Source: an uncultured delta proteobacterium (GTDB lineage: Bacteria; Myxococcota_A; UBA9160; JAFDET01). Taken from it: a DNA stretch of 64,000 bases. The position numbers and the translations under genes are program-made. Under the pieces are notes generated by a model. It did no database searches. It worked only from the letters and a program-made list of their open reading frames with translations, and had not been told where the DNA came from. Below, piece by piece: positions 2,625 through 17,090 of this stretch. Each line of letters begins with the position of its first letter. The first letter of the stretch is position 1. The stretch lies in contig CAMYLJ010000001.1 in assembly GCA_947259215.1 (NCBI GenBank), positions 20,505 to 84,504 of the forward strand. Direction: 5' to 3'.

Positions 2625-2660
2625 TGGTGGAGGCGGCGGGAATCGAACCCGCGTCCGCAT
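2625..2660. other. Probable attachment-site core (att) at the ssrA 3' end
   Basis: The acceptor/T-arm end of tmRNA directly abuts the integrase side of the element. Integrases of this arrangement recombine within the 3' terminal tens of bases and restore the RNA. The second att copy should lie to the left of position 1. I saw no second copy of this tmRNA end within positions 1-2553, so the element extends beyond the window. Confidence 0.6.
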
Positions 2661-2992
2661 GGCATCCAGCCAGCGCGTCTACGTGCGTAGCTTCAGCTCA
2701 ATCTCGGCGGAGCCAGTCACCGAAGCCGGAGCAGCAACCGCCCAGGCAGACGTGATTCTCGCCCCCGGATGCGGCCTGCCAGCGGCCGGGGGCCAGTCTC
2801 CTGATGACGCCCGCGACCCGCTAGGAGACGTCACGGACGGGCGTCGCTAGTCCTAGTTTCGGCTAGGCAGCGAGTGCGTAGTTATCGTCGGCAGCTATCG
2901 ACTACCAACATGCCACCGGTTTCACGAGGAGAGGTGACGACCTCGGCACGCAGCGCTCGCCTTCGACCATCCGTCGAAGCCAAGTCGCCCCC
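2625..2992 (-). ncRNA. ssrA: tmRNA (trans-translation RNA)
   Basis: A one-piece tmRNA that rescues stalled ribosomes with SmpB. The 5' end, GGGGGCGACTTGGCTTCGAC, starts at 2992. The 3' end is a T-arm and acceptor ending CCGCCTCC plus encoded ACCA at 2625. The 7-bp acceptor stem GGGGGCG/CGCCUCC forms with one G-U pair. The tag reading frame lies at 2892-2863 and encodes ADDNYALAA then TAG, preceded by UAGCU as expected before a resume codon. Length is 368 nt. Its 3' end is the likely attachment site of the element on the left, leaving the RNA intact. smpB is 11 kb away. Confidence 0.97.
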
Positions 2993-12404: not shown

Positions 12405-13709
12405 TCAAGGGGTTCCGGAAGACCCCCGCGGCGCCAGGCTGCGCACCTCCAGGGTGGCCAGGACCGCCCGGAACCAGGGCTGGTAGCCCGCGTAGACCTC
12501 TTCCGGGCAGTCGGCCACGATGGCCAGGATCCGGCCGTCGCCCACCTCCACGAAGGTGAGCTCCTCCACGACCGGCCCCTCCCGGCCCGACACCACCATC
12601 CGCAGGGCGGGCCGGCCCGCGACGTCCACCCGGCGCTGCTCCCGGACCCGCCCGCTGCCCACGTAGTGGGAAGCGTAGCGGTCGAGGTATTCGGCGACGG
12701 TCGGGTAGCCCCGGACGATCACCTGGAAGGTGGCGTCGTAGTCCCAGGTGGGTCCGTCCGTTGCGATGACCCCCGCCGCCGTCTCCACCCGCTGCCAGCC
12801 GGCCGGCAGGCGGAGCTCGTAGCCGAAACGCGCGTCCACGTGGGGCGCCGGCGCCAGCCGCGGCGGGCCCGGAGGCGGACCCGGAGCCGGCGGCGGAGCC
12901 GCGTCCCCCTCCGCGTCGAGGAGCCGGAAGACGCTGCCGTTGGGCAGGCGGTAGAGGCTCAGGAACGAGTTCACGTCCTGCTCCGACGGCCCGCGCACGA
13001 GCGGGCTGTCCCGCGCCACCGGAAACATCAGGTCGGCTGGCACCGGACTGTGTCGGCGCATGCCGAGGGCGTGGCCTAGCTCGTGGACCGCCACGCGTTC
13101 CACCTGGTCGGGGTTCAGGAGGCCGTAGTCGTCCGCCAGATAGAGCCGCAGCTCCGGCACATCGAAGGACACGGGCACGCGGTCGCCGACCCGCGGGCCC
13201 GTGACGGTACAGGCCGCGCCGAGCTGGATGCGGCCCAGCACCGAGATCGTGGACTCGGGCGCCGGCGCCACCTGCGCGACCAGCTCGACCCGCAAGGCGG
13301 CGTCCCGGGCGTCGCTCACCCGGCGGAAGCGGACCAGCCCCTCGAGATCCCGTTCCCAGGCCACCAGCGCCGCCTCCACCGCGGCCACGAAGGCCTCGGC
13401 GGGAATCGGCGCGAACTCGTCCTGGAGCGCCTCCGGAATCTCCGCGGGCGCCACGTACACGGGCAGCGGGAAACGGTCGGCCTCCCAGCGACAGAAGACG
13501 AGTGCGTCGCCGCCATCGGGGAGGGAGACCGCGTGCGCCAGAAACGGCAGGTAGTTGGGATCCAGCACCTCGGGGTGACGCTCGCGGAAGGCGCGGTAGT
13601 CGTGGCGGTCCGGCCGATAGGCGACGGCGACGGGAGGTGCCGGCGAGGCGGCGAGGCCGCAGCCCCAGGCGGCGGCCGCCGCGGCCGCGACTGCGCGCCG
13701 GCCCCTCAC
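12405..13709 (-). CDS. Secreted matrixin-like zinc metalloprotease
   Basis: 434 residues from GTG 13709, which overlaps the smpB stop as GTGA. A signal peptide covers about 1-28. The zinc motif is HELGHALG (209-216) followed by MRRH, so the third histidine is at +11 rather than the matrixin +10. DLMFPV just after fits a Met-turn. After a proline-rich linker the last ~150 residues form a separate domain (GWQRVET...TLEV) like the DUF1795/PsbP-type beta domain. The enzyme likely degrades or processes extracytoplasmic proteins. Coupling to smpB is probably positional only. Confidence 0.75.
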   Translation of the reverse strand: MRGRRAVAAAAAAAWGCGLAASPAPPVAVAYRPDRHDYRAFRERHPEVLDPNYLPFLAHAVSLPDGGDALVFCRWEADRFPLPVYVAPAEIPEALQDEFAPIPAEAFVAAVEAALVAWERDLEGLVRFRRVSDARDAALRVELVAQVAPAPESTISVLGRIQLGAACTVTGPRVGDRVPVSFDVPELRLYLADDYGLLNPDQVERVAVHELGHALGMRRHSPVPADLMFPVARDSPLVRGPSEQDVNSFLSLYRLPNGSVFRLLDAEGDAAPPPAPGPPPGPPRLAPAPHVDARFGYELRLPAGWQRVETAAGVIATDGPTWDYDATFQVIVRGYPTVAEYLDRYASHYVGSGRVREQRRVDVAGRPALRMVVSGREGPVVEELTFVEVGDGRILAIVADCPEEVYAGYQPWFRAVLATLEVRSLAPRGSSGTP

Positions 13710-14179
13710 CCGCGCCCGCTCCGCCGCACGGCGCGCCGCAGGCTGCGCTCCTCCTCCCGGCGGCGGATCGTCTCGCGCTTGTCCACCTGACGCTTGCCCT
13801 TCACCAGCGCCAGCTCGACCTTGGCGCGCCCCTGCTTGAAGTACAGGCGCAGCGGCACGAGCGTAAAGCCGCGCTCGTTGAGCTTGCCCTGGAGGCGCCG
13901 GATCTCCGGCTTGTGGAGCAGGAGCTTGCGCTCGCGGCGCGGGTCGGGATTCTCGCGGCCCGCCTGGTCGTAGGGGCTGATGTGCGCGTTCACCAGGATG
14001 CACTCGCCCCGCCGGATGCGGGCGTAGGCGTCCACCAGGTTGGCCCGGCCGGCGCGCAGGGACTTCACCTCCGGCCCCAGGAGCACCAGGCCCGCCTCGT
14101 GCGTCTCCAGCACGTGATAGAGGTGGCGGGCCTTCCGGTTGGTGGCCACCACCTTGTCCTCACCCCGCTCGTCAGCCAT
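13706..14179 (-). CDS. smpB: SsrA-binding protein SmpB
   Basis: 157 residues. SmpB binds the tRNA-like end of tmRNA and delivers it to stalled ribosomes. Family motifs: ATNRKARHLYHVLETHEAG near the N-terminus, GPEVKSLRAG and NLVDAYARI, then the basic C-terminal tail that folds into the decoding site. Length matches the family (150-160). The start is ATG 14179. The partner RNA ssrA is at 2625-2992. Confidence 0.98.
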   Translation of the reverse strand: MADERGEDKVVATNRKARHLYHVLETHEAGLVLLGPEVKSLRAGRANLVDAYARIRRGECILVNAHISPYDQAGRENPDPRRERKLLLHKPEIRRLQGKLNERGFTLVPLRLYFKQGRAKVELALVKGKRQVDKRETIRRREEERSLRRAVRRSGRG

Positions 14180-14378: not shown

Positions 14379-14729
14379 TCAGTCGCGGATCCGGTTCCGG
14401 GAGTCCACGAAGACCCGGGCGGCCTCCCAGGACCGCGCCTCCGCCTCGTCCAGCTGCACCCAGCTCGCGATGATGACCGTGTCACCCGGCTTCACCAGGT
14501 GCGCCGCGGCCCCGTTCACGCAGATCTCGCGCGAGCCCGGCTCGCCCTCGATCGCGTAGGTGCTCAACCGCGAGCCGTTGCTGCAGTTCCAGATGTCGAC
14601 CTCCTCGTACGGGAGGATGTCGGCGGCACGCAGCAGCTCCGAGTCGATGCTGACCGAGCCTTCGTACTCGACGTTCGCCTCGGTCACGGTGGCACGGTGG
14701 ATCTTGGACTTCAGCATCTTGCGCGTCAC
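14379..14729 (-). CDS. panD: Aspartate 1-decarboxylase
   Basis: 116 residues. PanD makes beta-alanine for pantothenate and coenzyme A. It is made as a proenzyme that self-cleaves; the cleavage site YEGSVSID (Gly-Ser at about 24-25) is present, so a pyruvoyl group can form on the Ser. [12 protein letters not shown] is also conserved. The start is GTG 14729 overlapping the panC stop (GTGA); Met5 is an alternative. Last gene of panB-panC-panD. Confidence 0.98.
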
Positions 14730-15622
14730 GAGGGGTCCTCCGGGTGGAGATGGGGGTGCAGCACGCGGTTGTCGATCAGGCGCACGCGGGCTCCCGGGTC
14801 GCCTGAGGCAGCGGGGAAGTGCACGGCCAGCGCCAGCAGGGTCGGCCCCTGCAGGCGTGTCGGGGCGGGCTCGAGGCGTTGCGGGTCACGAAGCTCCGCG
14901 TACTCGACGAAGGCCAGGGGAGCGCGCGCCAGCTCGGCCCGCACCCGGGCCAGGATCTCGTCGGCGCGAGCCTCGCCGTCCGCGACGGCGCGCTCGGCCA
15001 CGTCGAGGGCGCGCGCCAAAGCGCGCGCCTCGCGCCGGGCCGCGGGCGCCAGCAGCCGGTTGCGGCTCGAACGGGCGACGCCGTCCGGCTCCCGCGCGAT
15101 GGGCGCGCCCAGCACCTCGACGTCGAATCCGAGGTCGCGCACGAGCCGCCGGATCACCGCAAGCTGCTGGAAGTCCTTCTCGCCGAAGACGGCGACATGG
15201 GGCTTGGCGGCCAGCAGAAGCCGCGTCACCACGGTGGTGACGCCGCGGAAGTGGCCCGGGCGGCCGGCGCCGCAGAGCGGTCGCGTGAGCGCGTCCACCT
15301 CGACCCAGGTCTGGTGCCCGTCGGGGTAGAGCTCCCCGGCCTCGGGCGCGAAGACCACGTCCACGCCCCGCGCGCGGCAGGCGGCCGCGTCGGCCTCGAA
15401 GGGCCGCGGGTAGCGTTCGAAGTCCTCCTCGGGCCCAAACTGGCTCGGGTTCACGAAGATCGAGACCCACACCTCGTCGGCCTTGGCCCGGGCGGCGTCC
15501 ACCAGCGTGAGGTGCCCTTCGTGCAGCGCCCCCATGGTGGGCACCAGGGCGATGCGGCCACCCTCCGCACGCACGGCGTCGGCACGGGCCTGGAGCTCGG
15601 CGGTCGATTCCATGATGCGCAT
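14726..15622 (-). CDS. panC: Pantoate-beta-alanine ligase
   Basis: 298 residues from ATG 15622; Met4 is also possible. It condenses pantoate and beta-alanine using ATP. HIGH-like [11 protein letters not shown], the FGEKDFQQ motif and SSRNRLL (nucleotide loop) are all present. It lies 2 nt after the panB stop and overlaps panD by 4 nt, so the three pantothenate enzymes are made from one message. Confidence 0.98.
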
Positions 15623-15624
15623 GG

Positions 15625-16452
15625 CTAGCGGTAGCTGTGCTCGGTGTCGGGGAACTTGGCGTCCGCCACCTCTTCCGCGAAGGCGCGGGCGGCCCGGTGC
15701 GCCGCCGCGCCGAGATCCGCGTACTGCTTCACGAAGCTCGGCGTCCAGTCGTTCAGGCCGAGCATGTCGTGCATCACCAGCACCTGGCCGTCGCACTCGA
15801 CGCCGGCGCCGATGCCGATCGTCGGGATCGTGAGCGTGGCCGTGATCTCCGCGGCCAGCGCCGCCGGCATGCCCTCGAGCACCACGGAGAAGGCGCCCGC
15901 CTCCTGCACGGCGCGCGCGTCGGCGATCACCCGCCGCCGGTCGGCGTCTCCACGCCCCTGCACGCGGAAGCCGCCCATGGCGTGCACCGACTGGGGCGTG
16001 AGACCGACGTGCCCCATCACGGGGATCCCGGCGGCGACGATCCGCCGGATGGTCTCGCGCACCGCGGTCCCGCCCTCGAGCTTCACGGCGTGGGCGTCGC
16101 CCTCCTTCATCAGCCGGATCGCGGCGCGCACGGCGTCGTCGGCGCAGACCTGGTAGGAGCCGAAGGGCATGTCGGCCACCACCAGAGCGCGGGCCGCGCC
16201 GCGCGCCACCATGCGCGTGTGGTAGAGGGTCTCGTCGAGGGTGACCGGCAGGGTCGTGTCACGGCCCTGCACCACGTTGCCGAGCGAGTCCCCCACCAGC
16301 AGCACGTCGATCCCCGCCGCGTCGAAGATGCGGGCGAAGGCGAAGTCGTAGGCGGTGAGCATCGCGAAGCGCTCTCCCCGGCGCTTGCGGGCGGCCAGGG
16401 AGCGGACGGTGGTGCGGTGTTCGGTGGTCGCGGCGGCGCGGACGGTGGACAT
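15625..16452 (-). CDS. panB: 3-methyl-2-oxobutanoate hydroxymethyltransferase
   Basis: 275 residues. It makes ketopantoate from alpha-ketoisovalerate and methylene-tetrahydrofolate, the first step of pantothenate synthesis. Motifs MLTAYD, LLVGDSLGNVVQG, GHVGLTPQ and IGIGAG are present. The start is ATG 16452 with GGAGGA 6 nt upstream. It is preceded by a ~286-nt leader with its own promoter, hairpins and terminator (separate entries), so the operon is probably regulated by transcription attenuation. No ketopantoate reductase (panE) lies nearby. Confidence 0.98.
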   Translation of the reverse strand: MSTVRAAATTEHRTTVRSLAARKRRGERFAMLTAYDFAFARIFDAAGIDVLLVGDSLGNVVQGRDTTLPVTLDETLYHTRMVARGAARALVVADMPFGSYQVCADDAVRAAIRLMKEGDAHAVKLEGGTAVRETIRRIVAAGIPVMGHVGLTPQSVHAMGGFRVQGRGDADRRRVIADARAVQEAGAFSVVLEGMPAALAAEITATLTIPTIGIGAGVECDGQVLVMHDMLGLNDWTPSFVKQYADLGAAAHRAARAFAEEVADAKFPDTEHSYR

Positions 16453-16489
16453 GACCGATCCTCCGGGCCCGGGCGGGCTCGGGTCGGTC

Positions 16490-16535
16490 TCCTGAAACGA
16501 AAACGCGCCTCACGGGCTCTGTGGCCGGAGGCGCG
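16490..16535 (-). terminator. Intrinsic terminator-like hairpin in the panB leader
   Basis: On the minus strand CGCGCCTC (16535-16528) pairs perfectly with GAGGCGCG (16511-16504) around a 16-nt loop. It is followed immediately by TTTTCGTTT. It lies 38 nt before the panB start, inside the leader, where premature termination would control panBCD. Confidence 0.65.
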
Positions 16536-16610
16536 GTGCATCGACGTTCGAAGCCGGATCCCCGTGGACCGCGCTTCGTGACTGGTCGACTTCCCGGTGC
16601 CCGCCCCCGT

Positions 16611-16734
16611 CTCGGTCCGCAGCGCGGATCCGAGCGTGCTCTGGGCGATCGGTGAGGCGACATCCTCGTCATCGGACCGACCTGGCGTCGGCCGGGCGTT
16701 TGCTGCGTAGGGGATCGCCCTGTGCGATTCCCCT
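16611..16734 (-). promoter_or_regulatory. Structured panB leader: two matching hairpins with a bulged A (pan-motif-like)
   Basis: Hairpin 1 (16734-16709) is AGGGG, bulged A, AUCGC, loop ACAGG, GCGAU, CCCCU. Hairpin 2 (16634-16611) is CUCGG, bulged A, UCCGC, loop GCU, GCGGA, CCGAG. Both are 5 bp, one bulged A on the 5' side, then 5 bp. A further weaker hairpin lies between them. The known pan RNA motif, as I recall it, sits before pantothenate genes (including in deltaproteobacteria) and often has paired hairpins with bulged adenines. The match is by eye, so the family assignment is tentative. Confidence 0.5.
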
Positions 16735-16744
16735 CGACCCCCGG

Positions 16745-16773
16745 AGGCTAAGCGCGCCTGCCGCCCCGGTCAA
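16745..16773 (-). promoter_or_regulatory. Candidate promoter of panBCD
   Basis: TTGACC (-35, 16773-16768) and TAGCCT (-10, 16750-16745) on the minus strand are 17 nt apart. Transcription would start near 16738, immediately before the first leader hairpin, giving a leader of about 286 nt. The -35 matches consensus at 5 of 6 positions. Confidence 0.55.
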
Positions 16774-16802: not shown

Positions 16803-17090
16803 TCACTCCGTCTCGCCGCCCTCCAGCCGGGACCGCACGGCGGGCGGCAGGAAGCGCTCTTCGAGCAGCTCGGGGGCGTGCCCACGGATGGCGCTCGCCA
16901 GCACCTCCAGGTGCTCCTCGACGGGATCGCGCGCGTTCAGGATCACCCACACGCGGCCCCGCAGCCGGCAGACACCGCTCGCCAGCGGCAGGCCGGGCTC
17001 GACCTCCCCGGCCCCGGTGTGCACGCGCACGTCCATCCCCGCCTCGCGCGCCAGCTCAGCCAGGGCGTCGCGCAGCTCCTCGGGACTCAT
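16803..17090 (-). CDS. Conserved-looking 95-residue protein of unknown function
   Basis: I do not recognise the family. It is a compact mixed helix/strand protein with SGVCRLRGRVWVILNARD and an acidic C-terminus. Its ATG at 17090 overlaps the rsmA stop (ATGA), so it is coupled to rsmA at the end of the tol operon. There is no signal peptide or membrane segment. A single cysteine is present and no metal motif. Confidence 0.65.
   Translation of the reverse strand: MSPEELRDALAELAREAGMDVRVHTGAGEVEPGLPLASGVCRLRGRVWVILNARDPVEEHLEVLASAIRGHAPELLEERFLPPAVRSRLEGGETE

What the first reader, a model, noticed from the sequence alone, without database searches (positions are those of the whole stretch)
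16453..16773. panBCD leader with promoter, two identical-architecture bulged-A hairpins and a terminator
A 17-nt-spaced promoter starts transcription right before hairpin 1. Hairpins 1 and 2 share a 5 bp, bulged A, 5 bp plan. A perfect 8-bp hairpin with TTTTCGTTT sits 38 nt before panB. This fits attenuation control and resembles the orphan pan RNA motif.
Basis: partly seen in the sequence, partly recalled or inferred. Interest (0 to 1): 0.75.

Follow-up and report, generated by a model that had tools for sequence, protein, structure and literature searches.

The report
Hidden pan-type RNA switch before panBCD
In front of the vitamin B5 genes of an uncultured bacterium lies a divergent relative of the "pan" RNA motif that the standard Rfam model misses; a strand of its last hairpin is also complementary to the first half of a terminator-like hairpin, so it likely switches the genes off and on, and what it senses is not known.

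Summary
On the minus strand before panB lie a -35/-10 pair 17 nt apart, hairpins H1 and H2 (each with two bulged As) and an 8-bp terminator. Rfam's pan model scores 16.5 bits (cut-off 36.2) and passes its cut-off in 0 of 79 genomes of the order, though H2 closely matches pan hairpin 2. A model built on 40 leaders also finds 12 of 14 others. H1, H2 and a stem under H2 covary. New: the strand after H2's bulged A (CGGGGGCG) can close H2's base or pair with the terminator's 5' arm (CGCCTCCG). In 105 loci outside the order this pairing is species-matched: -10.26 against -8.90 kcal/mol swapped, z -6.5 against -1.9 and -2.2 in reversed controls. It is marginal inside the order and inconclusive in Rfam-positive loci. 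Signal and direction are inferred. In passing: in five genomes without detectable PanB the same kind of hairpin precedes hxlB-hxlA/RraA genes; 15 of 15 comparison genomes have PanB.

The parts
16768..16773 (-). -35 box TTGACC
   Evidence: sequence; TTGAnn-N16-19-TAnnnT within 55 nt of H1 in 24 of 40 leaders, 0.1 expected
16745..16750 (-). -10 box TAGCCT, 17 nt from the -35
   Evidence: sequence; same count as above
16706..16736 (-). H1, first pan-type hairpin; bulged A 16728 and 16708
   Evidence: 12 pairs checked; 41 leaders aligned, 95.9% of cells paired
16643..16647 (-). 5' strand of the stem under H2 (pairs with 16602-16606)
   Evidence: pairs checked; helix covaries, 82.5% paired, 3 of 4 pairs with double changes
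16608..16636 (-). H2, second pan-type hairpin; bulged A 16629 and 16610
   Evidence: Rfam pan alignment, 16.5 bits, below cut-off; 99.3% paired in 40 leaders, 4 of 10 pairs with double changes; 97.9% across several phyla
16602..16609 (-). S, strand CGGGGGCG: closes H2's base and the stem under it, or pairs with 16526-16533 (predicted antiterminator strand)
   Evidence: complementarity in the window; species-matched outside the order; marginal inside the order; inconclusive in Rfam-positive loci
16526..16533 (-). CGCCTCCG in the terminator's 5' arm, complementary to S
   Evidence: 8 pairs checked; same tests as S
16504..16535 (-). terminator hairpin, 8 bp
   Evidence: pairs checked; terminator-like hairpin found by script in 45 of 51 relatives' leaders, two of these weak
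16495..16503 (-). T-run TTTTCGTTT after the terminator
   Evidence: sequence
16460..16464 (-). GGAGG, likely panB Shine-Dalgarno
   Evidence: sequence
15625..16452 (-). panB
   Evidence: Pfam PF02548, E 6.2e-115
14726..15679 (-). panC (start chosen by eye)
   Evidence: Pfam PF02569, E 1e-94
14379..14729 (-). panD
   Evidence: Pfam PF02261, E 1.6e-49

Best explanation
This is a divergent pan-type leader RNA with two bulged-A hairpins and a terminator-like hairpin, in which the strand that closes the base of the last hairpin is also complementary to the terminator's 5' arm and so likely acts as an antiterminator that lets the RNA switch panBCD. Likely working: transcription starts just before H1. 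When the signal (a metabolite of the pantothenate/CoA pathway, or a protein that reports on it) binds the bulged-A hairpins, the base of H2 and the stem under it stay closed, S is hidden, the terminator forms and transcription stops before panB. Without the signal S opens, captures the terminator's 5' arm, and RNA polymerase reads on. In a few relatives without a detected terminator the same strand carries the panB Shine-Dalgarno sequence, so the same closure would block translation instead. Shown: the helices, their covariation, the mutually exclusive complementarity, promoter-like boxes, gene context. Inferred: the signal, the sign of regulation, the start site, and the switching itself.
For: H1, H2 and the stem under H2 covary. 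R1 finds the unit in 52 of 54 panB leaders, 40 of which built the model, so 12 of 14 independent ones. S and the terminator's 5' arm are complementary over 8 pairs in the window and overlap both H2's base and the terminator stem. In-order exceptions keep pairing through changed letters: L036, L049 and, with mismatches, L053. Outside the order, with terminators found by script in 105 of 144 loci, native duplex energy -10.26 against -8.90 swapped, 0 of 20,000 permutations as low; near-duplicates removed, 77 loci, -10.09 against -8.63; z -6.5 against -1.9 (reversed S), -2.2 (reversed arm), -1.6 (next 14 nt), 0.1 (14 nt upstream). Forced OFF and ON folds of the window are equal in energy, -113.0 and -113.2 kcal/mol. 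No terminator and a GGAGG directly after H2 before the start codon in L030, L045 and L172, L175. The first pan gene downstream is panB, panC or panD in 142 of 158 R2 hits.
Against: Inside the order S hardly varies and the swap test is marginal (48 leaders, p 0.048). In Rfam-positive loci (38 of 43) S with arm gives z -3.9 but reversed S -3.4 and reversed arm -3.7, so composition or kinship explains it as well. Weak signal also in the terminator 3'-arm control (p 0.07; p 0.026) and in the reversed controls outside the order (p 0.03 and 0.015). No test accounts for the tree. The unconstrained fold of the window (-115.4) keeps H1, H2 and the stem but pairs the terminator's 3' arm with the linker. 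The window's own H1 has its 3' bulged A shifted by one base against its relatives. No signal, start site or expression data.
Confidence: 0.6

Rival explanations
1. The hairpins are a protein-binding site: a regulator, perhaps a dimer gripping both hairpins, steers the same terminator or ribosome site.
For: Weinberg et al. 2010 proposed a dimeric protein-binding motif because most pan RNAs are tandem (passage read). The hairpins are small with few invariant unpaired bases.
Against: Many loci outside the order show one hairpin only in the stretch printed, so a pair is not needed; no candidate protein was sought here.
Confidence: 0.3
2. The hairpins and terminator are conserved but do not exchange strands: the terminator is a plain attenuator and S with the arm match by composition.
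For: The swap test is marginal inside the order, and reversed controls are as strong in Rfam-positive loci.
Against: Outside the order the match is far beyond the same controls (z -6.5 against -1.9 and -2.2).
Confidence: 0.15
3. Leader-peptide or T-box attenuation.
For: A terminator follows a structured leader before a biosynthetic operon.
Against: No ATG position before H2 is shared by more than 2 of 51 leaders, and 12 of 51 have any RBS-preceded ORF of 8-60 codons starting between H1 and H2. Rfam finds only tmRNA in the window at its cut-offs.
Confidence: 0.03

Closest known systems
pan RNA motif (Rfam RF01749; Weinberg et al. 2010, PMC2864571, passage read)
   Same: Stems with two bulged As each, in tandem, upstream of panB/panC/panD operons; the H2 core (CGCTYGGATCC...GGACCGAGACGG) is the same as in many Rfam-positive loci.
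   Different: Scores below Rfam's cut-off; H1 of other sequence, sometimes with a C in place of the 5' bulged A; linker about 72 nt here (31 positions in the model); an extra covarying stem under H2; a predicted antiterminator strand.
transcription-attenuating riboswitches in general (recalled)
   Same: A sensor stem, an antiterminator and a terminator that share strands.
   Different: No ligand known; the sensor is a roughly 30-nt hairpin that occurs alone in other phyla.

Membership tests
pan motif RF01749 | score at or above Rfam's gathering cut-off (36.2 bits) | tested here: not met
   16.5 bits in the window; 0 of 79 genomes of the order over the cut-off
pan motif RF01749 | stem interrupted by two bulged As | tested here: met
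   H2: both bulges invariant in A2 and A4. H1: 3' bulged A in nearly all aligned leaders, 5' bulge A or C; in the window the 3' bulge of H1 is shifted by one
pan motif RF01749 | tandem arrangement (most, not all, pan RNAs) | tested here: met
   H1 by pattern in 41 of 54 leaders, a lower bound; present in the window
pan motif RF01749 | upstream of panB, panC or panD | tested here: met
   window panBCD; 142 of 158 further hits have a pan gene downstream
transcription attenuator | intrinsic terminator with a mutually exclusive, evolutionarily maintained antiterminator | tested here: inconclusive
   met outside the order, marginal inside it, not separable from controls in Rfam-positive loci
riboswitch | direct binding of a metabolite | not testable with these tools
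   needs binding assays

The most novel reading that the evidence does not exclude
The bulged-A pan hairpin is itself a minimal metabolite sensor for the pantothenate/CoA pathway whose closing strand serves as antiterminator or ribosome-site mask across several phyla, and its regulon reveals a PanB-free route: in genomes without PanB it controls hxlB plus an HPS-RraA fusion that would make ketopantoate from formaldehyde and ketoisovalerate.
Probability: 0.25. Interest if true: 0.85.

Novelty: new variant of a known kind. Interest (0 to 1): 0.6.

Why it matters
The pan motif was described in 2010 without a known signal (passage read), and a 2022 review lists CoA among cofactors without a known riboswitch (passages read, PMC9971707). 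A predicted pair of mutually exclusive strands makes the mechanism testable with one set of compensatory mutations. The Rfam model passes in none of 79 genomes of this order, while a hairpin of this kind is found in 113 of 297 sampled genomes of the phylum of a Geobacter MAG, so the regulon is likely wider than listed and can point to missing pantothenate enzymes.

Tried and rejected
Rejected: T-box and leader peptide. Little use: free folding of the whole leader, whose minimum mixes the linker with the terminator. The outer helix below H2 (GCC/GGC) is only 70.9% paired on A2 because its 3' side slides; I do not claim it for the window. My first antiterminator test used seven outside leaders and three in-order leaders whose terminator arms I picked by eye; the automatic test replaced it for the main claim. 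The idea that the pairing is general in Rfam-positive loci did not survive its reversed-sequence controls. A formaldehyde signal was considered because of the hxl and AOR contexts and dropped once the hxl genomes showed no PanB and the AOR genes were seen to stand before panB on the same strand.

Rows left out before counts: of 56 genomes with PanB 54 leaders were used; G018 (match at a contig start) and G026 (partial match) were not. For A2, 40 of 51 leaders with H2: five long-looped ones and six others (L021, L023, L030, L045, L048, L052) left out. For A4, 33 of 34 prepared rows (L024 left out). In one search, four duplicate loci (L212, L213, L256, L258) dropped. In one search, hits up to E 0.01 were all fetched outside the order (24), I fetched or received all but a few of the listed hits, not the 184 genomes without a hit.

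Of 158 R2 hits, 16 showed no pan gene: five hxl, two AOR, one contig end in the order, and eight others (seven Myxococcota hits with weak scores, and L254), probably false or with too little sequence held.

Papers: passages read in PMC2864571, PMC9971707, PMC5670726; PMC10043782 and PMC7266159 searched for terms, no pan motif named; the rest seen as search listings only. That no paper describes a pan antiterminator or an hxl link rests on the searches in the held open-access library.

Full report
What is there. panB, panC and panD lie on the minus strand (Pfam PF02548, PF02569, PF02261), after a 350-nt gap behind a 94-aa ORF without a Pfam match (16803-17087, start chosen by eye). Reading that gap 5' to 3' on the minus strand: -35 TTGACC, 17 nt, -10 TAGCCT; H1 (16736-16706); a linker of about 70 nt; a stem (16643-16647 with 16602-16606) under H2 (16636-16608); about 70 nt; a perfect 8-bp terminator-like hairpin with TTTTCGTTT; GGAGG; the panB ATG at 16452.

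Is it more than chance. Of 60 related genomes searched, the window's own included, 56 encode PanB. I took 54 leaders, the window's and 53 relatives'. H2 was found in 51 of 54: 49 by pattern, L010 and L030 added by hand because a base after the core differs. An alignment of 40 of them (A2) gives, for H2 plus the two stems below, 89.3% of cells paired against 83.9% in 500 shuffles (none as high), nine pairs with double changes against 5.6, and 36-47% when partners are slid. H2 alone is 99.3% paired; one pair occurs as GC 27, UG 8, CG 5. H1 was aligned from 41 leaders (the pattern misses some) and is 95.9% paired with 33 double-change cells against 11.5 shuffled; two coarser measures are not clearly above shuffles (pairs with a double change 4 against 3.5; further types 13 against 11.1). 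A model from A2 (R1) recovers 52 of 54 leaders, 40 of them its own training rows, so 12 of 14 independent ones; the misses are L047 and L054, and L054 shows a lone H1-type hairpin just before its start codon (seen by eye). In whole genomes R1 hits 62 of 90 of the class, 61 of 79 of the order, many being training genomes, and once in the window's own genome, here.

Relation to the pan motif. Rfam's pan model reaches only 16.5 bits in the window and aligns H2 to its second hairpin. It passes its cut-off in 0 of 79 genomes of the order, in 138 of 398 genomes of the phylum of a MAG labelled Bacillota, and in 10 of 301 of the phylum of one labelled Chloroflexi. The H2 core in many of those Rfam-positive loci (CCGCTTGGATCC...GGACCGAGACGG) is the same as here, and H1 in relatives follows the same plan: five pairs between a 5' bulge followed by UC and a 3' bulged A. 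In a subset of the order the 5' bulge of H1 is C with the neighbouring pair turned from A-U to U-A. I read the leader as a variant of pan that the model misses, probably because of its H1 sequence, long linker and extra stem; by Rfam's rule it is not a member.

Wider distribution. A model of the H2 hairpin from several phyla (R2; 97.9% paired, 7 of 10 pairs with double changes) hits 87 of 377 genomes of the phylum (63 of 79 in the order, 7 of 11 in the rest of the class) and 113 of 297 genomes of the phylum of a Geobacter MAG. Of 158 non-redundant hits examined beyond the first 54 leaders, the first pan gene downstream is panB in 105, panC in 31, panD in 2, panB after one other gene in 4, and none in 16. 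In several of 13 loci printed a single hairpin follows directly on a promoter-like sequence.

The switch. In the window S (CGGGGGCG, 16609-16602) forms the 3' side of H2's base and of the stem below it, and is complementary over 8 pairs to CGCCTCCG (16533-16526) in the terminator's 5' arm. The two states exclude each other. Where relatives change, the pairing tends to persist: L036, L049 and, with mismatches, L053 in the order; L073, L099 and L298 outside it. Tested without hand-picking outside the order, a terminator was found in 105 of 144 loci; S with its own arm averages -10.26 kcal/mol against -8.90 when arms are swapped, 0 of 20,000 permutations as low; with near-duplicates removed (77 loci) -10.09 against -8.63. 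83 of 105 reach -8 kcal/mol. Controls: z -1.9 for reversed S, -2.2 for reversed arm, -1.6 for the next 14 nt, 0.1 for the 14 nt upstream, against -6.5; the terminator's 3' arm gives p 0.07 and 0.026 without near-duplicates. So part of the effect is composition or kinship, but most is not. Inside the order S hardly varies and the test is marginal (48 leaders, p 0.048), although S binds its arm much better than shuffled S (-16.19 against -12.40). In Rfam-positive loci (38 of 43 with a terminator) the reversed controls are nearly as strong as the signal: inconclusive. Where no terminator was found, the strand after H2 can carry the ribosome site: L030 and L045 in the order, L172 and L175 among other Myxococcota, with L173, L174 and L176 similar. 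One mechanism with two outputs is the simplest reading; the sign of regulation is inferred.

Energies. With constraints, the OFF fold (H1, H2, stem, terminator) is -113.0 and the ON fold (antiterminator) -113.2 kcal/mol; the unconstrained minimum is -115.4 and pairs the terminator's 3' arm with the linker. These numbers ignore co-transcriptional folding and any signal.

What it senses. Not shown. Downstream genes are those of pantothenate synthesis; also a DUF2520/Rossmann protein with a weak PanE/ApbA match before panB or panD (three scanned; others recognised by eye), a peptidase S58 protein in three loci of the Chloroflexi-labelled phylum (one scanned) and a biotin ligase gene in one Bacillota-phylum locus. 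End-product repression by a pantothenate/CoA-pathway signal is the simplest reading. Weinberg et al. proposed a dimeric protein; single-hairpin loci make a dimer unnecessary, though not a protein.

Side finding. In five genomes (G421, G515, G457, G424, G637) the hairpin precedes hxlB and an HPS-RraA fusion (one protein of each kind scanned, the others recognised by eye). A PanB profile finds no PanB in any of the five and finds it in all 15 comparison genomes, five of which were known beforehand to have panB near the hairpin. G421 still has panC and panD, and G515 panD, behind another copy of the hairpin. The five look like about three lineages and are drafts, so absence may be incompleteness. 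If real, the RNA points to a PanB replacement; that is inference.

Organism. Contigs of the same length in a named collection (for example L060, L061) are labelled Myxococcales, Myxococcota or Deltaproteobacteria MAGs, so the window likely comes from an uncultured Myxococcota-type order.

Noticed in passing
L235, L248, L312, L316, L323 (genomes G421, G515, G457, G424, G637): A pan-type hairpin precedes hxlB and an HPS-RraA fusion; a PanB profile finds no PanB in these five genomes but finds it in 15 of 15 comparison genomes. Possible PanB replacement.
   Followed up: partly
L281, L282 (genomes G592, G569): The hairpin precedes an aldehyde ferredoxin oxidoreductase gene (L281 scanned), with panB further downstream on the same strand of the contig.
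   Followed up: partly
L246, L249, L251, L257; L329, L333, L335, L345, L355, L364, L367: A DUF2520/Rossmann protein with a weak PanE/ApbA match (L246, L251, L355 scanned) is the first gene behind the hairpin, before pan genes: candidate ketopantoate reductase.
   Followed up: partly
L358, L360, L363: Rfam-positive or near-positive pan RNA before a peptidase S58 gene (L358 scanned; others by eye); relatives of that family can release beta-alanine (recalled).
   Followed up: no
L067, L072, L073, L099: The hairpin's 5' strand lies where an upstream reading frame ends (...HYIPLGS in L067, read by eye), so hairpin and protein end seem to share sequence.
   Followed up: no
L054 (upstream of panB): A lone H1-type hairpin with a promoter-like sequence stands just before the start codon; no H2.
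   Followed up: no
window 2625-2992 (-) and 13706-14179 (-): tmRNA and, shortly downstream of panD, an SmpB-like ORF (recognised by eye) about 11 kb apart.
   Followed up: no
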